Source: Leptospirales bacterium
Lineage (GTDB): Bacteria > Spirochaetota > Leptospiria > Leptospirales > Leptospiraceae
Direction of reading: 5' to 3'
Length of the DNA stretch: 64,000 nt
Assembly (NCBI GenBank): GCA_013297885.1
Contig: JAAFIR010000008.1
Coordinates: 62,001 to 126,000 of the forward strand
Below, piece after piece: positions 1 to 11,409 of the stretch; within the stretch, counting starts at the first letter, position 1, and each line of letters starts with the position of its first letter. The notes below the pieces were generated by a model. It did no database searches and was not told where the DNA came from. It was given only the letters and a program-made list of their open reading frames with translations. The position numbers and the translations under genes were made by a program.

Positions 1-345
1 AACATAGTTAACCTCTTAATTTGTCTGAAGTTAGTTTTTTCAAAAAATATTGCAAGCAAAAAAAAATATTTATAGAAAAGTTTTTTTGCTTTTTGCTTAA
101 AAAATTCCCTCTATTTTGAAAAAATGGAGAGGGAGTTATATTCCCTTGTTTGACTAATTATATAAAGTTGGGTGAGGTGGGCGAGTTTTTGCTTCGCAAA
201 AATCAGACTCTCAACTCCCGTCAAAAAATTTATCCTCCCTGCTTCTGTGAAGCACCAAGCCAAGCTATGTCAATTTTTTGACGACGTTTCGATTCTTCTC
301 GCTTTCACTGCTAGAGTTGTAAAACCTAATTTTATTTGAGAGAAT
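1..345. other. Intergenic stretch, AT-rich, holding one family A repeat
   Basis: No open frame here resembles a protein. The left half is A/T-rich with a short imperfect hairpin near 129-145 (GGGA and TCCC arms). The right half is the family A repeat described separately at 179-314. The minus-strand lipoprotein gene ends at 346, so the repeat lies just downstream of that gene's stop. Confidence 0.6.
179..314 (+). repeat. Family A structured repeat, copy A1
   Basis: The element opens with GGGCGAG, followed by a small hairpin TTTTTGC-ttc-GCAAAAA. Next comes the block ACTCTCAACTCCC, matching GCTTTCAGCT of other copies. A second stem pairs GTCAAAAAATT (220-230) with AATTTTTTGAC (272-282). It closes with CGTTTCGATTCTTCTCGCT. 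The order of blocks matches copies at 18190, 30244, 49809 and 60723. The second loop is unusually long here, about 40 bases. Confidence 0.75.
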
Positions 346-2948: not shown

Positions 2949-3152
2949 ATGACAGAGATTAACGAGAAGCAAAAAGCAAAAATAACAGCATATGAAAAAG
3001 GTGATGTTGAAAGAGTGAATGGTATTTTAAAAGGGGAATTCTTTTTAAATAAATTTCCAACTAAGGAATTAGCTTACAAAACAATTAAGCAAAGTATTAA
3101 AATTTATAATGAATCTAGACTTCATCAAAGTATATATTATAAAATCTTCTAA
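2949..3152 (+). pseudogene. IS3-family transposase remnant (C-terminal end)
   Basis: The 67-residue frame contains VERVNGILKGEFF followed by KFPTKELAYKTIKQSIKIYN and RLHQSIYYK. This is the end of the DDE integrase core of IS3-group (IS150-like) transposases, including the last catalytic glutamate region. The remaining several hundred codons, the helix-turn-helix and the terminal repeats are absent, and the last codons diverge from the usual TPEQVH-type ending. It is a dead fragment between a truncated family A repeat and the CRISPR-Cas operon, and may mark how that operon arrived. Confidence 0.75.
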
Positions 3153-3419: not shown

Positions 3420-4349
3420 ATGCTTAACTCCAAACTAGAATTTTCAAAAGTATCAATTGATTTAAAAGCTACAGATGAAGCTGTTTTGCCTCAATTCTCA
3501 GGGTCCTATTTAAGAGGGGCATTTGGTCATTCTTTAAAAAAAGCATTTTGTGTGATGAGTCATAAAAATTGCCAAATTTGTTTAGTAAAAGATTCTTGTG
3601 GGTATTTTCAAGTATTTGAAAGTTTAGATGATTCAAAAAAAAATTCAGGTTATTTGTACAAACCCCATCCTTATATCATTCATCCAACTTGGGATTTTGA
3701 ATTTAAAAAAGGGGGAATATTAAATTTTCAAATTATCATTTTTGGAGATTATATAAAGTATTTACCTTATTTTATTTATAGCTTTGAATTAATGGGTAAA
3801 CTTGGATTTGGAGCAGAACGTTTTAAATTTGAATTAGAAAATATTACTGATTTTTATTCTGAAAAATCAATTTATGAAAATAAAACTATAATTTCAAATT
3901 CTATTACAAAAATTAGCATTCAAGAATATGCAAATAAATTTATTTTGGAAAATCAAAGTGTTTTTAATTATAATTTAAAATTTATCACTCCAGCAAGATT
4001 TGTTCAAGATAAAAAAGATGTTCAATCTTTAACACCAGAAATTTTACTCCACTCTATGATTCGTAGATATAAAATCATGAATGAATTTTATGGAACCTTT
4101 GATAAAGAAGATTTGAATTTGGGTAATTTAAAGTTGAACGAAGAAAATGAACAAGAATACAAATCTTGGAAAAGATATTCCAACAGGCAAAAGACAACTT
4201 TAAAGCAATGTGGAATAATTGGAAAATACAAAATCACTGTTACAGAAAAAAAACTAGTTCTATTTTTATATACCATGCAAATTTTATCAATTGGAAAAAA
4301 TACAACATTTGGTTTAGGAAAAATTTTACTAGAACCAATTTTAGATTAG
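3420..4349 (+). CDS. cas6: Cas6 CRISPR RNA processing endoribonuclease (PF10040 type)
   Basis: Cas6 cuts the CRISPR precursor transcript within repeats to produce guide RNAs. This 309-residue protein has the layout of the PF10040 (formerly DUF2276) branch. The N-terminal motif FSGSYLRGAFGHSLKKAFC is followed by a cysteine cluster (CQICLVKDSCGY, about residues 51-62). Later comes FITPARFVQ at about 190 and a glycine-rich C-terminal strand NTTFGLGKILLE. It is the only apparently undamaged gene of the type III operon and it opens it. No CRISPR array is seen in the window, so its RNA substrate must be elsewhere or lost. The ATG at 3420 lacks a strong ribosome-binding site. The 267 bases before it are AT-rich, with no repeats. 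Confidence 0.85.
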   Translation: MLNSKLEFSKVSIDLKATDEAVLPQFSGSYLRGAFGHSLKKAFCVMSHKNCQICLVKDSCGYFQVFESLDDSKKNSGYLYKPHPYIIHPTWDFEFKKGGILNFQIIIFGDYIKYLPYFIYSFELMGKLGFGAERFKFELENITDFYSEKSIYENKTIISNSITKISIQEYANKFILENQSVFNYNLKFITPARFVQDKKDVQSLTPEILLHSMIRRYKIMNEFYGTFDKEDLNLGNLKLNEENEQEYKSWKRYSNRQKTTLKQCGIIGKYKITVTEKKLVLFLYTMQILSIGKNTTFGLGKILLEPILD

Positions 4350-4359
4350 GTAAGGAATA

Positions 4360-6954
4360 ATGGAAAAAGAATTGTTCATTAAGTAGGGATTAGTATATGC
4401 AAGTTTTCTTCACGATGTGGGAAAAATTTCTCAAAGAACCAGGTGTAAAATCAAAATATATAAATGATGAAAAAATAAAAAGTTTATTAACTAAAGGTTA
4501 TGGATATTTACATGCATTATTCACTCAAGAATTTTTTGAAAGAGAGATAGAAGGAAAAAGTATTGAACATATTTTTAAAAGTTTTGGTAACCCACTTTTT
4601 AATGGTGAAGAAGAAGATAGTATCACAAATATTTCAGCAAAACATCATAATCCCAGTTCAGCATACCAATAGCTAATTGCAAAATCAGATAGACTATCAG
4701 CAGGACATGATAGAAAAAAATCAGATGAAGAAGATGAACTAACAGGGAAAAAATTTTTAAAAACTAGAACAGAATCCATTTTTAATTTAATAGATATAGG
4801 AAAAACAAAATCTGTTTCCAAATATTATTATGAAATTAATTTTTTTGATGGAGATTCTAAAAAAAGTAAATTTCCAGTTAAACAATCAGACTTAAATCCA
4901 AAATTTGATGAATTATTAACTAATGAATACAAAAATTTATTTGATGAGCTTTGTAAAAAATTTGATTTAGAAATTTTTCTTGAATTAGAAAAAAATCCAT
5001 TTGGGGAAGAAACACTATATAAATTTTTAACCCTCACCGAGAGATTTTATTTTTCAGCTCCAAGCTCTACAATTGATTTACCAGATATAAATTTATATGA
5101 TCATTCTTATCTGATTGCTGCAATTTCAGTTGCTCTTTATGATTTTCATAAAACCACAAATAGTTTTTCAGTTAAAGAAATTCAAAATGATGAAATCGAA
5201 AAATTTACTTTAATTGAGGGAGATCTTTCTGGAATTCAATCTTATATTTTAAAATTTAAACAAGAATCAACTAAAGGTTTAGCTAAATCATTAAGAGCTA
5301 GATCATTTTATCTTCAAATGATTACTAAGTCTATTGAAAAAGAAATTTTAACTAAGTTGGAACTCCCACCCACTTCAGTTATATTAAGTGCTGGTAGTAA
5401 ATTTCAGATCCTTGCTCCGAATATTCCGAAAGTCAAAAATCTAATTGAAGAACTTCAAATCCAAATAGATGCTTGGCTATTAGAAAGATATATGGGTGAA
5501 ATAAGTTTTCATTTGGCGAGTGTGAATTTAAGTCCAAAAGATTTATTACTAAATGAAAAAAATATCATTCCACTAAAAAATAAACAAAAGATTTGCACAA
5601 AACATTAGAGCAAAAAAAATCTGAAAAATTAAAATCTGTTTTAATTAAAGACAAAGTTTGGAATACAAATAATTTTATTTTTAAAAATCAATATGAAGAT
5701 TATTTAAACAATGGAGTTTGCTCAGTTCAAGGATATTATCCTGCTACTGAATTTGATAAAGAATCAGAATCAATTGATAAAAAAACAATTGGAACAGTTG
5801 CTTTATCTGAAAGAGAAATTGGGCAAGACATTCCAAATTTTGATTATATTAAGTTTCATGAAAAAGGAAATGGCGAATTGCCATTTGGAAATTTTTCAGT
5901 TTCCAATAAGGGTTTATTTAGGTTGATACAATCTGAAAAAACACTTGAACCAAGTTTTTCGTTTATTGGACATTTACCGAAGTTTAAAGATAAATCCGAA
6001 CAAGCCAAAAAACAATATTACAAAAATTATTGTATATCTTGTAATGAAAACAAACCAGATGGTTGTGAGATTCAATTAAAATTTGATACTAAATCTTTTC
6101 ATTGTTTAGGACAAGAAAGTTTAAGAGAAAATCAGAATCAAGAAATGATTGGTAAATCATTCTTAGGTGTTCTAAAAGCTGATGTGGACAATTTAGGTTT
6201 AATATTTAGAAATGGTTTATCTAAAAATGAAAATAGAGATAAAGATTATTTTTCAATTTCAAGATATTCAGGTCTTAGTAAAAATATTAATTATTTTTTT
6301 ACTGAATATTTATCTGAAATATTAAAAGAAAAATTCCCAGATATTTATACTGTTTATGCTGGTGGAGATGATTTATTTCTTTTGGGACTATTCCCTTCGA
6401 TATTAAAATTTATAAAATTTTACCAAACTGAATTTCAAACATATACTTGTGAAAATCCTAATATTAGTTTTTCAGCTGGATTTGCTTTGCAAAAACCAAG
6501 AGCCCCAATTAGCATTGGTGCTTCAAGAGCAGAAGAAGAATTAGAAAATGCTAAACAAAATAAAAATTCAATTTCTTTATTTGGAAATAGTTTATCTTGG
6601 AATGAATTTTCAAAATGTTTAGAAATTACTGAAAATTTAAAAAAATATATTGATTCAGAAATTCTCACAACTGGTCAAATGTATCGTTTATTAAAATATA
6701 TCAAAATGTATAAAGCGATAGACCAAAATCCTTTGAATGTAATGTACAATTCTTATTTTGTGTATGATAAACATAGAAATATTTATGCGAAAATTTCTGA
6801 AAAAGGAAACTCTGAAAAAGATTTACAATATAAAAATTTAGCAAAAGATTTAGAAGAATATTTTTCAAAAGATTTTGAGAAAAGAAAAATTTTAGATTTT
6901 TTAGAAGTTCCAATTCAACTAGCAATTTATCAATCCCGAGGAGGAAAAGGATGA
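4360..6954 (+). pseudogene. cas10: cas10/csm1, broken by two stops and two frameshifts
   Basis: Cas10 is the large subunit of type III complexes: an HD nuclease plus a palm domain that makes cyclic oligoadenylate. The HD motif FLHDVGK is at 4405-4425, after an in-frame TAG at 4384. A one-base excess near 4425 then shifts to the frame carrying LTKGYGYLHALFTQEFFE. A TAG interrupts SAYQ-stop-LIAKSDRLSAGHDR at 4670. A missing base near 5585 splits NKQK from LHKTLEQKK. The second half holds a zinc-ribbon-like set of cysteines (YCISCNENKPDGC, then FHC) and an intact palm motif VYAGGDDLFLLG. The last codon overlaps the csm2 start (ATGA). Residues on both sides of each lesion are well conserved, so inactivation looks recent; sequencing error is the alternative. 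Confidence 0.9.
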
Positions 6955-7357
6955 TTCAATGGTATAAAGATACTACAAAAAAAACTTTAAGACCTGATTT
7001 ATTGGATAAAGAGGCTTCATCTGAAGCAAAAATTGGGCGACTAGTAAAGATAAAAACAATGAACCATCATTTACAACTACTCAACTTAGACGTTATTATT
7101 CAGAAGTAAAAAATATAGAGCGTCAAATGCAAGTATTAGGAAAAGAATCATGGGATACAATTTTTCCAATGGTAAAAATGCTTAAATCCAAAATTAGTTA
7201 TGATATGAGAAAGGATAATAAAATCCCCAATGAGTTTAAATCATTCATATATAATTCAGTTGATTCGATTAAAGATGAAAATGATTTTAAAGCATTTTTA
7301 AAATTCTTTGAAGCATCAGTTGAATATTTTTACGGTGAAGGAAAATCAAAGGCATAA
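6951..7357 (+). pseudogene. csm2: csm2, broken by a one-base deletion
   Basis: Csm2 is the small alpha-helical subunit lining the type III-A filament. The first reading frame gives MIQWYKDTTKKTLRPDLLDKE. After a run of five A near 7030 the frame must shift by one base to continue as NWATSKDKNNEPSFTTTQLR and then QVLGKESWDTIFPMVKMLK. The C-terminal motif FEASVEYFYG fits the family ending. One extra A in the run would restore a protein of about 135 residues, the normal length. Reading simply stops or restarts at an internal ATG at 7127 otherwise. The start overlaps the cas10 stop. Confidence 0.85.
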
Positions 7358-7367
7358 GGAGAATAAA

Positions 7368-8030
7368 ATGAAATTATTAGAAATTAAAAAAATTACAGGA
7401 ACTGTTGAACTACTTTCAGGATTACATATTGGTGCAGGAAAAGATGAAATTGAAATTGGTGGAGTTGATATGCCTGTAATCAAAGATTCAGTTTCGGGTG
7501 AGCCATACATCCCTGGTTCTTCATTAAAAGGGAAAATGAGAAGTTTATTAGAATGGAAACTAGGTGAGTTAGATTCAAATGGACAAATTAAACAAAAACC
7601 AAATGAAAATGATGTTGTAGCTAGAATATTTGGAAATACAAATAAAGAATTAAAAAAAGGTCCTACTAGAATTATTGTGAGAGATGCTCTTTTAAATCGA
7701 GAACAACAAAAGACTTTAGCGATGGAAGCAATTTCAAGAACTGAGGTGAAATATGAAAATACAATTAATCGTTTAATTTCAGAAGCAAACCCTAGACAAC
7801 AAGAAAGAGCGATTTCAGGATTATTATTCGATTTGGAAATAGTTTATAAAATTTTTGATATTTCGGATAATGGAGAAAATGACAAAAAGAATTTTGAATT
7901 TTTAAAACAAGCTCTAAAATTAGTTGAACTAGATGCTCTAGGTGGTGGTTGAAGTAGAGGAAATGGTAAAGTGAAATTTAATTTAAGTATTGATGGACAA
8001 ACATTAGATTTATCTAATATAAAGGTCTAA
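7368..8030 (+). pseudogene. csm3: csm3, interrupted by an in-frame TGA near the C terminus
   Basis: Csm3 forms the backbone of the type III-A complex and cuts target RNA. The N terminus has GLHIGAG and IGGVDMPVIKD, with the catalytic aspartate at residue 34, followed by the signature YIPGSSLKGKMRSLLEW. The frame is open to TGA at 7950-7952 and continues unchanged as SRGNGKVKFNLS to TAA at 8028. The family normally reads LGG-x-G-SRG at this place, so the stop replaces a residue of the conserved glycine-rich loop; a GGA to TGA change would explain it. The truncated product would lack only about 25 residues but would lose that loop. A good ribosome-binding site (AAGGAG) precedes the ATG. Confidence 0.88.
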
Positions 8031-8032
8031 TC

Positions 8033-8989
8033 ATGCAAGACTATTTAGCAAAAATAGAACTCAAAACAAATTTGTACACTTCCATTCATGGAGATAGTTT
8101 ATTTGGAATGATTTGTTGGATGATTCTTTATTTGGAGGGTGAAAATGTTTTAACTGAATTTTTAAATGATTCAGAAAAATCTCCACAAGCTATTTTTAGT
8201 TCTGCTTTTCCTGAAAACTATTTACCAATTCCAAATTTACCAAAAATAGATTTAATTGATGAAGAGTATAAATATTTAAAAAAATTAAAAAAAGAAAAAT
8301 ATATTTCTTTGGAATATTTTTTAAAGAATAGAAAGAATTTTTCAATTAAAGAATTTCAAAATTTTAGAATAAGTGAATATAAGTCTGAAGAAACTAAATT
8401 AAAACTTCATTCTGGAAAAGAATTAAAATCATCTAAGTACATTCCACATAATTCAATTAATCGTTTAACAGGAATGGTGGAAGAAACAGGTGGATTGTTT
8501 TTTTCTTGTCTTGTTGCTGAACCAAACACTAAATATGATATTTATATTTCTGTTGAAACAAAATGGGCTGAAAGAATCAAAAAAGCTTTTTTTTCACTTG
8601 GAGAATTTGGTTATGGAAAAGATTCTTCTATTGGTTGAGGTTCTTTTGATATAAAAAGTTTTGAGCTAACAAAAATTTTTGAAACTACAGAATCCTATTC
8701 TCATTCGATTGCACTATCTCCCTTTGTTCCTTCTGAAACTGATTCTATACAAATTCGTTATGAATTGTTTACTCGTTATGGAAAAATTGGTGCTGCTTCT
8801 GGATTTGAAACAAAAGAATTTGGATATTTAAAAAAACCAATTTTAATGATGAAGCCTGGTGCTTTTTTTACTGAACAAAAAAAATCTTATGCAGGACTAT
8901 TAATTCCAGATGTTCATATCAATCCATCTGTAAAACATTCAGGATATACCAAGCTATTAGGAATCAATTGGAATGGTGATATTTCTTGA
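8033..8989 (+). pseudogene. csm4: csm4, interrupted by an in-frame TGA
   Basis: Csm4 is the RAMP protein that caps the complex and holds the 5' handle of the guide RNA. The opening GDSLFGMICWMILYL fits the family, as does the glycine-rich FGYGKDSSIG at about residues 192-201. A TGA at 8636-8638 follows directly, and the same frame then continues with GSFDI, FTRYGKIGAASGFE and MMKPGAFF to a stop at 8987-8989. The full frame is about 318 codons, normal for Csm4. The end overlaps the TTG start of the following small gene. Like csm3, the lesion is a single nonsense codon inside a conserved glycine-rich loop. Confidence 0.87.
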
Positions 8990-9330
8990 AACTTCCAGGC
9001 GAGCCTATAATTTCACCAAATAAATTAATAAAATATTTGTTGTTACCACAAGAAGAAGATTATAAATCTAAATATCTAAATGAAGGTGGTTACTTACTTT
9101 CGAATTGGCAAGAATTGTATAGAGATCTTATTGACTTATCAGAAAAGTTTCCAGCAAAGTTCAAAAAGAAAACTATTTTTGGTGACGAATATATTATTCA
9201 AGACACTTTATCTGGTAGAAATGGTTGTAAATCAAGAAAAATTTATTCGGTTTGGTATTATGAAAAAAATGAGAATGTCTCAAGATTTATTACATTGAGA
9301 CCTCTTAAAAAAAATGAGGAATTAAAATGA
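8986..9330 (+). CDS. DUF6883-like small protein inside the csm operon
   Basis: This 114-residue protein starts at TTG, overlapping the csm4 stop. Its layout (MKLPGEPIISPNKLIKYLL, DYKSKYLNEGGY, then KIYSVWYYEK and RFITLRP) matches what I recall of DUF6883, often next to a DUF4926 gene, as here. It is not a known Csm subunit. The frame is intact although the genes on both sides are broken. It overlaps the following gene by four bases (ATGA). The pairing suggests a small two-component cassette, possibly toxin-antitoxin-like, but that role is an inference. The family call is from memory of the residue pattern. Confidence 0.6.
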   Translation: MKLPGEPIISPNKLIKYLLLPQEEDYKSKYLNEGGYLLSNWQELYRDLIDLSEKFPAKFKKKTIFGDEYIIQDTLSGRNGCKSRKIYSVWYYEKNENVSRFITLRPLKKNEELK

Positions 9331-9578
9331 AACTAGAATTATATAAAAAAGCAGTTATCAAAACTGATATTTCAAAATATAAATTAAAAAAAGGAGATGT
9401 TGTAACATTAGTAGAATATTTCCCTTCTGTCAAAGATAGGAAAGCTGGTTATGCAGTTGAAGTATTTAATATTCATGGAGAATCGATTGCAGTTTTAGAT
9501 TTGTTAGAATCACAACTTGTAGCTCTTCCGCAAAATGCTCTGCCTTCAATTCGCAAAATAAAAAAAATTGCTGTTTAG
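9327..9578 (+). CDS. DUF4926-like small protein
   Basis: This 83-residue protein reads KLKKGDVVTLVEYFP followed by AGYAVEVFNIHGESIAVLDL. This is the SH3-like beta pattern of DUF4926 proteins, small partners frequently encoded beside DUF6883 genes. It starts at the ATGA overlap with the previous gene, so the two are translationally coupled. The frame is intact, and csm5 starts 10 bases after its stop. Function is unknown; an antitoxin or immunity-like role toward its neighbour is possible, since SH3-like folds often act as binding partners. Confidence 0.65.
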   Translation: MKLELYKKAVIKTDISKYKLKKGDVVTLVEYFPSVKDRKAGYAVEVFNIHGESIAVLDLLESQLVALPQNALPSIRKIKKIAV

Positions 9579-9587
9579 GTAAATCTC

Positions 9588-10912
9588 ATGAAACAATTTC
9601 AAGCAAGTATAGAATTTTTAACACCAGTGCATATTGGTTCGGGTGAGTCTCTTGGTCCTTATGAATATTTTATTCGAGATGGAAAATTTAATAAATTAAA
9701 TATGCCAAAATTTATTTCTTCTTTAACTCCAGAGCAAAGAAAAAGTTTTTTGGATTTACAAGATAGAGATGAACAAATAAAACTCAGAACATTCCCTAAA
9801 CAAAATGCAAAAAAAGAAACCGTTGATTTACAAATTCCTGTTTCCAAATCAATTGAGAATGAATACAACCAAAAAATTTCTGGCTTACAAAATCGGTTAG
9901 ATATAAATTTATTTCCGCAAGATGGAGTGAGAAAAAAACCATTTTTACCTGGAAGCTCTTTAAAAGGAGCTTTTAGAACTGCAATTTTGCAAATGTTTGT
10001 GAAAAAAAACTCAACTCAAGATTTTAGAAATAATGAAAAAAGTTTTGAATCCACAATTTTAAAATATGCAAATGATATGAAAAAAGATGTTTTTAGAGCA
10101 TTAAAAATTCCAGATATAAGTTTAGAATCTACTGAAACTGAAATTTTAGATTGCCAAATGTTTAATCCAAAAAAGCCAGCACAAGGAAGTTTTGACCAAA
10201 GAATGCAAGTTACTTTTAGCAGAATTTCTAGAATTGGTCAGTCCAAGGCTTATTCATTTGAATTTTTATTTTATGAAGATTTGATTTCAAAAGCAAATCT
10301 CCCAGAAAAATTTAGCATCCAAGATTTAGGAAATTCATGTAACGAACATATCTAAAAATTCTAAATTGGGAAATAAAAACTTTTTATTCTCATTTAAACA
10401 CACCAGAATTTTCACCTGTAAAAAATTTAAAATTGGAGAATAACCAATTTTTAATTCGACTCGGAAGATTTGGTCATGTGGAAAGTAAAACTATGGATAA
10501 AATTCGGAATCCAAAAGTTAAATGGGATAATAAAAATAATAAAAGTTTTGGTTGGGGAAAAACTAGAACTTTTGCAGCTGGAAAATATCCAATGGGTTGG
10601 GCAGTTATCACAATCCAAGGAATGAATTTTACAAAACCAACAATAGACCCAAATTTGCAACCAACAGGATTTGGAAAAAGTTTGGATTCTAGTTCTCAAA
10701 ATTATCCTCAAACTAAAACTTATTCTCCTGAGTCGAAAAAATACAATCAGGATTATAAACCAAAAGAATTTAAAAAAGAGAATCAATATCAGAATAAAAC
10801 TGAAAACAAAGATAATTACCAAAAGAAAAATGAAAACAAACCTAAAAATTATAATCAAGATTCTAGTTCAACTTATAACCCTTTTAAAAATATAAACAAG
10901 GATAAAAAATAG
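9588..10912 (+). pseudogene. csm5: csm5, frameshifted, with a long low-complexity tail
   Basis: Csm5 is the RAMP protein at the growing end of the type III-A filament and helps recruit guide-RNA trimming nucleases. The first part has FLTPVHIGSGESLGPYEYF and the signature FLPGSSLKGAFRTAIL at about residue 123. At about 10350 a missing base ends the frame (NSCNEHI-stop); the next frame continues with LKILNWEIKTF and the C-terminal RAMP segment LIRLGRFGHVESKT and PMGWAVITI. After the normal end (about 10620) the frame runs on for roughly 90 residues rich in Asn, Lys, Gln, Ser and Tyr (for example KKENQYQNKTENKDNYQKK), predicted disordered. I do not know such a tail from other Csm5 proteins. Confidence 0.87.
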
Positions 10913-10946: not shown

Positions 10947-11222
10947 ATGGCTAAAATATTAATTTCACCAATTGGAACAGGTGGTTTAAGTAAAGATAAT
11001 ACCTCCGCAAGAGAATACAGAAAAACAAATTATAAAATAGATGAAAAAGTTTATGAAAGAAGTTTTGTTTCTTCCGCATTAAAAGATCATTTGGGAATAG
11101 ACCATATTTTATTTATCGGAACTGTAAAGTCCATGTGGGAAGAAGTGTATCGATTTTATAATGAAGATAAAGGCTCTGAAGAGCGAAAGCTCTCAAATCG
11201 GTCAGCTAGGTGGACATATTGA
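10947..11222 (+). pseudogene. Truncated CARF-domain CRISPR ancillary protein (Csx/TM1812-like)
   Basis: The frame opens with MAKILISPIGTGG, then EYRKTNYKIDEKVYERSFVS and HILFIGTVKSMWEEVYRFY. This is the N-terminal half of a CARF domain of the TM1812/Csx2-type family, which binds cyclic oligoadenylate made by Cas10. Family members normally exceed 350 residues; here recognisable sequence ends near 11169 and is replaced by SEERKLSNRSARWTY-stop, reading into repeat-derived DNA. The effector half (HEPN nuclease or other) is therefore missing. The signalling arm of this CRISPR system is dead even if Cas10 were repaired. Confidence 0.8.
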
Positions 11223-11249
11223 TAGCTTTGCTATGTTTCGCCACACGCT

Positions 11250-11387
11250 GAGCTGCGAAAGTGATTAAAGCGGGGTCATTATTTTGTGCATACTAAATAA
11301 TGACCAGAGCTGAAAGCACGGTTTTTTTACCTAACTCTCTTTCTCTTCCTAAATAAGCTAACTGGGTTAGGTGAAAAAATTCGCCCC
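11250..11387 (-). repeat. Family A structured repeat, copy A3
   Basis: Plus-strand order is GCGAAAGTGATTAAAGCGGGG, a stem TCATTATTT / AAATAATGA (11276-11302), CAGAGCTGAAAGCACGG, and an outer stem TTTTTTTACCTAAC / GTTAGGTGAAAAAA closing in TTCGCCCC. It is a full-length minus-orientation member. It lies just after the point where the CARF gene loses homology; the short stretch 11170-11249 also contains small inverted repeats (GAGCGAAAGCTC). Confidence 0.85.
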
Positions 11388-11409
11388 AAAAAATAAATAG
11401 AGGATAATT

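What the first reader, a model, noticed from the sequence alone, without database searches (positions are those of the whole stretch)
8986..9578. Intact two-gene DUF6883/DUF4926 cassette between broken csm4 and csm5
These overlapping genes are not Csm subunits, yet they sit translationally coupled inside the csm operon. Both frames are clean while all later cas genes are damaged. Retention in a dying operon suggests independent selection, as for an addiction module, or a new ancillary function tied to type III immunity.
Basis: partly seen in the sequence, partly recalled or inferred. Interest (0 to 1): 0.62.

Follow-up and report, generated by a model that had tools for sequence, protein, structure and literature searches.

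The report
RNase toxin-antitoxin pair in decaying CRISPR operon
Two small overlapping genes inserted in a broken CRISPR operon most likely encode an RNA-cutting toxin and its neutralising partner, a widespread and apparently undescribed toxin-antitoxin family that landed there by chance rather than a working part of CRISPR immunity.

Summary
Window 8986-9330 (DUF6883) and 9327-9578 (DUF4926) are intact, overlap by ATGA, and sit between csm4 (in-frame TGA at 8636) and csm5 (frameshift near 10340). The inference from intactness fails: about 9 disabling lesions in 6.2 kb of cas genes predict 0.86 in 593 bp (P of none 0.42), and cas6 is intact too. DUF4926 directly follows DUF6883 in 56 of 59 intact loci across at least eight phyla. 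Several sit on plasmids next to parAB, or inside restriction-modification operons. One relative has DUF6883 as the C-terminal tip of a HINT-domain polymorphic toxin, followed by DUF4926. Where a pair is half broken, the toxin is lost (7 versus 0). The DUF6883 model (pLDDT 90) has the BECR RNase fold (CdiA-CT Kp342, Z 10.9); its invariant Lys13, Tyr17 and Thr103 fall at the active-site positions of those tRNases. DUF4926 is an SH3-like barrel. A type III-specific role is not supported: no cas genes near 68 other loci, and none of 23 other csm5-bearing genomes of the phylum carries DUF6883. Best reading: a mobile type II toxin-antitoxin module inserted at the csm4/csm5 junction. No activity was tested.

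The parts
8986..9330 (+). DUF6883 gene (114 aa, TTG start overlapping the csm4 stop): predicted BECR-fold ribonuclease toxin; candidate active site Lys13, Tyr17, Thr103
   Evidence: Pfam PF21814 E 6.5e-12; AF2 pLDDT 90; VIA-align Z 10.9 to 6CP9; invariant residues
9327..9578 (+). DUF4926 gene (83 aa), ATGA overlap with DUF6883: predicted antitoxin/immunity protein, SH3-like barrel
   Evidence: Pfam PF16277 E 1.8e-8; AF2 pLDDT 82; SH3/KOW-like matches
8033..8989 (+). csm4 pseudogene: one in-frame TGA at 8636-8638; stop overlaps the cassette start
   Evidence: TIGR01903 E 3.2e-19; TGA and open remainder
9588..10912 (+). csm5 pseudogene: frameshift about 10334-10355
   Evidence: TIGR01899 E 6.3e-18; C-terminal Csm5 match in the other frame; three-frame translation
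7380..8030 (+). csm3 pseudogene: one in-frame TGA at 7950-7952; the only csm3 in the genome
   Evidence: TIGR02582 E 1.8e-59
4353..6954 (+). cas10/csm1 pseudogene: at least two TAG stops and two frameshifts
   Evidence: TIGR02578 E 1.8e-78
6960..7357 (+). probable csm2 remnant with a frameshift (assigned by position and size, no family match made)
   Evidence: three-frame translation
3420..4349 (+). cas6, intact (309 aa)
   Evidence: PF10040 E 3.7e-13; PADLOC Cas6 E 2.8e-67
10947..11222 (+). truncated csx1/CARF N-terminus
   Evidence: TIGR02221 E 2.4e-11, below cut-off; PADLOC CARF_HEPN E 2.4e-32

Best explanation
The cassette is a self-contained type II toxin-antitoxin module in toxin-first order. 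DUF6883 is a small BECR-fold endoribonuclease that probably cleaves tRNA or another RNA with a Lys-Tyr-Thr active site, as colicin D and CdiA-CT Kp342/EC3006 do. DUF4926 is an SH3-like barrel made from the same message by overlapping translation; it binds and blocks the toxin, and loss of the antitoxin would free the toxin and stop growth. The module moves horizontally and was inserted at the csm4/csm5 junction of a type III-A operon that later decayed. Shown here: pairing, fold prediction, conserved triad, toxin-domain fusions, asymmetric decay, insertion site. Inferred: toxicity, RNA target, binding, addiction.
For: Pairing: 56 of 59 intact DUF6883 loci have DUF4926 directly downstream, usually -11 to +31 nt apart (annotated plasmids). 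Toxin context: a 2044-aa frame with PT-HINT and C-terminal DUF6883, followed by DUF4926 with Pfam E 4.6e-21; DUF6883 on a Phage_Mu_F protein. Asymmetric decay: toxin broken with antitoxin intact in L009, L052, L060, L062, L090, L100 and same-genus L101; the reverse never seen. Fold: AF2 pLDDT 90, pTM 0.82; VIA-align top rows 6CP9 Z 10.9 (rmsd 2.4, 98 aligned), 6CP8 Z 8.1, then a Salmonella toxin-antitoxin complex Z 7.7, BrnT Z 7.0 and RelE Z 6.4. Active site: the reported ranges put K13 on K157 (6CP9) and K204 (6CP8), Y17 on Y208 and T103 on T255, the residues listed in PMC9086364 and PMC6851490; all three are invariant in 15- and 27-sequence alignments. Plasmid contexts: next to parAB (L017, L019) or a parA-like ATPase (L022). 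Insertion: csm4 abuts csm5 in relatives.
Against: No experiment; no complex could be modelled. Foldseek alone was weak (best E 0.009). L104/L107 have DUF6883 at the end of a restriction-modification operon without DUF4926, and the ORF after the MuF fusion is not a DUF4926 by an independent profile. DUF4926 shows no DNA-binding domain for autoregulation. The residue pairs are read from alignment end points, not from coordinates. The asymmetry rests on 7 loci, 3 of them found through the antitoxin.
Confidence: 0.84

Rival explanations
1. Ancillary type III CRISPR genes: the pair served the Csm operon, for example as a collateral RNase or abortive-infection arm coupled to csm4.
For: It lies exactly between csm4 and csm5, overlapping the csm4 stop by TTGA. 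BECR RNases could plausibly act as effectors.
Against: No cas homologue by tblastn in 68 other DUF6883 loci. None of 23 other csm5-bearing genomes in the phylum sample has DUF6883. csm4 or an ORF in its place abuts csm5 with no insert in 20 of 21 relatives with an upstream ORF to compare. No CARF-like domain in either protein.
Confidence: 0.05
2. A guard/addiction module selected for nesting inside defence operons in general (restriction-modification and CRISPR), penalising loss of the defence system.
For: Between hsdS and hsdR in Anabaena, before a helicase in a locus with hsdS in Meiothermus, after a restriction endonuclease in Rhizobium and Agrobacterium, and here in a csm operon.
Against: Most copies, on cyanobacterial chromosomes, flank unrelated housekeeping genes; no enrichment test was made; in this window it did not prevent decay of the operon.
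Confidence: 0.12
3. A displaced toxin/immunity tip of a polymorphic toxin, kept as an orphan immunity pair against incoming toxins rather than as an addiction module.
For: DUF6883 is a tip domain in L012 and L013; solitary DUF4926 genes exist, for example L101 in the same genus.
Against: The window pair has its own start, no delivery domain, and belongs to the dominant stand-alone form.
Confidence: 0.08
4. Neutral passenger: a toxin-antitoxin pair by descent, intact by chance in this genome, with no present function (compatible with the best explanation's identity, not with its present activity).
For: 0.86 lesions expected in 593 bp, P(0) about 0.42; operon-dependent expression may be gone.
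Against: Catalytic triad and full length of both genes are kept.
Confidence: 0.3

Closest known systems
CdiA-CT Kp342 / CdiA-CT EC3006 (BECR tRNases; PDB 6CP9, 6CP8)
   Same: Same predicted fold (Z 10.9 and 8.1); the Lys-Tyr-Thr triad positions are invariant in DUF6883; paired with a downstream inhibitor gene
   Different: 17-18% identity; the window protein is stand-alone, with no delivery part; Kp342 immunity is a dimeric beta-sandwich and EC3006 immunity is alpha-helical (PMC6851490), not an SH3-like barrel; the Arg position is not conserved
RelE/HigB/BrnT type II toxin-antitoxin systems
   Same: BECR-fold toxin (Z about 4-7), small overlapping toxin-antitoxin operon, plasmid and chromosomal spread; toxin-first order as in higBA and brnTA (order from general knowledge)
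   Different: Antitoxin is an SH3-like barrel without HTH or RHH; Lys-Tyr-Thr triad of the colicin D/CdiA type
MuF and HINT-containing polymorphic toxins (PMC5576092)
   Same: DUF6883 occurs as their C-terminal tip (L012, L013)
   Different: The window copy lacks any N-terminal delivery or HINT domain
CreTA, CRISPR-regulated toxin-antitoxin (PMC9458426)
   Same: Toxin-antitoxin module located in a CRISPR-cas locus
   Different: CreTA toxin and antitoxin are RNAs controlled by a type I effector; here two proteins, with no sign of dependence on Csm

Membership tests
BECR superfamily RNase (DUF6883) | N-terminal helices packed on a four-stranded antiparallel sheet (BECR fold) | tested here: met
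   AF2 pLDDT 90, order E-H-H-H-E-E-E-E; the top VIA-align rows are BECR toxins, Z 10.9 to 6.4
BECR superfamily RNase (DUF6883) | Conserved Lys-Tyr-Thr active site of the colicin D/CdiA-CT subgroup | tested here: met
   K13, Y17, T103 invariant in the 15- and 27-row alignments; alignment ranges place them on K157/K204, Y208, T255; side-chain geometry not checked
BECR superfamily RNase (DUF6883) | RNA cleavage activity | not testable with these tools
   needs biochemistry
Type II toxin-antitoxin system | Two small, adjacent, co-oriented protein genes that recur together | tested here: met
   56 of 59 intact loci paired, mostly overlapping or within 31 nt
Type II toxin-antitoxin system | Toxin inhibits growth and the antitoxin protein binds and rescues | not testable with these tools
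   indirect only: toxin lost with antitoxin kept 7 times, reverse 0
Type II toxin-antitoxin system | Patchy, mobile distribution including plasmids | tested here: met
   10 of 296 genomes of the phylum; plasmids beside partition genes
Polymorphic toxin | Toxin domain fused behind a delivery/processing domain | tested here: not met
   met for relatives L012 and L013, not for the 114-aa window protein
Type III CRISPR ancillary gene | Recurrent linkage to type III effector genes | tested here: not met
   no cas match in 68 other loci; 0 of 23 other csm5-bearing genomes have DUF6883
CreTA | Antitoxin RNA made from degenerate CRISPR-like repeats | tested here: inconclusive
   no CRISPR-like array found in the window by a crude exact-repeat scan; degenerate repeats not excluded

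The most novel reading that the evidence does not exclude
DUF6883-DUF4926 modules are selected as guards of defence operons: nested and translationally coupled inside restriction-modification and type III CRISPR operons, they kill or arrest cells in which the defence operon is silenced or lost.
Probability: 0.12. Interest if true: 0.72.

Novelty: new member of a known kind. Interest (0 to 1): 0.42.

Why it matters
It gives a testable function and three named catalytic residues to two widespread domains of unknown function. They look like a BECR-RNase toxin-antitoxin family that PADLOC v2 does not hold and that the open-access library searched does not describe. It also removes a false lead: the csm location does not make it a type III gene.

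Tried and rejected
Recoding (TGA = Trp) of the csm genes: rejected, since TGA ends normal genes in the window and TAG stops and frameshifts also occur. Sequence search of PDB: nothing significant for DUF6883; RSV F-protein matches to DUF4926 (E 1e-4) are not supported by the profile search. The first alignment was too diverse for scanning; viral-contig scans and the phage collection gave no relatives. L014 (Cas9) is a sub-threshold chance match to DUF6883. The apparent DUF4926 after the MuF fusion (L013) was circular, as it had been put in the profile; with an independent profile it scores about 0 bits. No complex prediction was possible for two proteins in different frames.

Full report
OBSERVATION. 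DUF6883 spans 8986-9330 (114 aa, TTG start within TTGA, which is also the csm4 stop) and DUF4926 spans 9327-9578 (83 aa, ATGA overlap). Pfam supports both above cut-off. The surrounding genes are type III-A: cas6, cas10, csm3, csm4, csm5 and a truncated Csx1/CARF gene; csm2 is inferred from position only. csm3 and csm4 each carry one in-frame TGA at a likely Trp codon, csm5 and cas10 carry frameshifts, cas10 also carries TAG stops, and Csx1 is truncated. The genetic code is taken as standard, because TGA ends ordinary genes in the window. This is the only csm3 in the genome.

IS INTACTNESS INFORMATIVE? Counting about 9 disabling lesions in 6196 bp of cas genes, 0.86 are expected in 593 bp, so a cassette without a lesion has a chance of about 0.42; cas6 (930 bp) is intact as well.

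PAIRING. DUF6883 relatives were collected from 296 genomes of the same phylum (10 positive), from 84,980 species genomes (42 loci) and from plasmids. One relative's contig has the same length as a contig titled Spirochaetes bacterium RA.bin95, so the phylum is probably Spirochaetota (inference). Among 68 distinct loci besides the window, 59 have an intact DUF6883; 56 of these have DUF4926 directly downstream, counting L039, where it runs off the contig. Exceptions: L104 and L107 (Rhizobiaceae plasmids, end of a restriction-modification operon) and L013 (MuF fusion). Hosts include Spirochaetota, Cyanobacteriota, Planctomycetota, Latescibacterota, Ignavibacteriae, Pseudomonadota, Actinomycetota, Deinococcota and Bacillota.

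TOXIN CONTEXT. In L012/L114 DUF6883 is the C-terminal tip of a 2044-aa frame with a PT-HINT domain, and the next gene, overlapping by 4 nt, is DUF4926 (Pfam E 4.6e-21). In L013 DUF6883 is the C-terminus of a Phage_Mu_F protein, the architecture of MuF polymorphic toxins (PMC5576092). On cyanobacterial plasmids the pair sits beside parAB or a parA-like ATPase; in Anabaena it lies between hsdS and hsdR.

ASYMMETRIC DECAY. Loci with a broken or deleted toxin and an intact antitoxin: L009 (TAA), L052 (TAG), L060 (stop/frameshift), L062 (interrupted), L090 and L100 (internal deletions), and L101, a species of the same genus in which the toxin is reduced to its first residues. The reverse was not seen. 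L090, L100 and L101 were found through the antitoxin, so only the other four are free of that bias. In L035 and L063 both genes are damaged or missing, and L046 and L048 have an unclear toxin start.

FOLD AND ACTIVE SITE. AlphaFold2 on 27 sequences gave pLDDT 90. Foldseek alone was weak but rich in RelE/HigB toxins. VIA-align ranks CdiA-CT Kp342 (6CP9) first at Z 10.9, rmsd 2.4 over 98 residues, then CdiA-CT EC3006 (6CP8) at Z 8.1, then toxin-antitoxin toxins including BrnT and RelE. The aligned ranges (7..107 on 151..259; 5..113 on 196..336) put K13 on K157 and K204, Y17 on Y208, and T103 on T255, assuming no gap at the ends. These are the active-site residues given in PMC9086364 (Table 1) and PMC6851490. 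All three are invariant in 15- and 27-row alignments. DUF4926 models as an SH3-like barrel (pLDDT 82), a common fold that by itself shows no function.

TYPE III LINK. tblastn of the window Cas proteins finds none in the 68 other loci; loci are 2-20 kb long, so more distant linkage is not excluded. Of 24 genomes in the phylum sample with a csm5 homologue, only this one has DUF6883, and no other member of its genus or family in the sample has csm5. In 20 of 21 relatives with an upstream ORF to compare, that ORF lies within -26 to +77 nt of csm5, and most of these ORFs are recognisable as csm4. The cassette is thus an insertion at that junction in one lineage.

CONCLUSION. The most likely account is a mobile type II toxin-antitoxin module with a BECR RNase toxin and an SH3-like antitoxin, inserted at the csm4/csm5 junction. 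Fold, pairing, conservation, fusions and insertion site are tool results; toxicity, RNA target, binding and addiction are inferred. No paper in the library mentions DUF6883, and the one that mentions DUF4926 gives no function. A general guard role for defence operons is possible but untested, since most copies flank housekeeping genes.

Noticed in passing
window 7950-7952 and 8636-8638: csm3 and csm4 are each broken by a single in-frame TGA at a likely Trp codon after GGT, with the rest of each frame open.
   Followed up: yes
window 2949-3152: Short ORF resembling an IS3-type transposase C-terminus, upstream of cas6 (recognised by eye only).
   Followed up: no
window 11190-11400: Csx1/CARF gene ends abruptly at what looks like a rearrangement junction.
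   Followed up: no
L116 (G000 contig 28) and L117 (G000 contig 8): Two Cas1 matches elsewhere in the genome, so other CRISPR-Cas loci may exist; the window has no CRISPR-like array by a crude scan.
   Followed up: no
L101:1249-1731: Same-genus species with a solitary DUF4926 whose reading frame begins with the first residues of a deleted DUF6883.
   Followed up: yes
L013:1812-2048 and 2150-2386: A Phage_Mu_F-DUF6883 fusion is followed by two near-identical tandem 78-aa genes, possible duplicated immunity genes not recognisable as DUF4926.
   Followed up: partly
L104:5995-6375 and L107:4935-5315: DUF6883 without DUF4926 as last gene of a methyltransferase/BPTD_3080-type restriction operon on Rhizobiaceae plasmids.
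   Followed up: partly
L064:10010-10375: Toxin N-terminal half fused in frame to the antitoxin C-terminal part by a deletion (Ignavibacteriae MAG).
   Followed up: partly
L020:3317-3785: Nostoc plasmid with a frameshifted DUF4926 next to the toxin and a second, divergent intact DUF4926 behind it.
   Followed up: no
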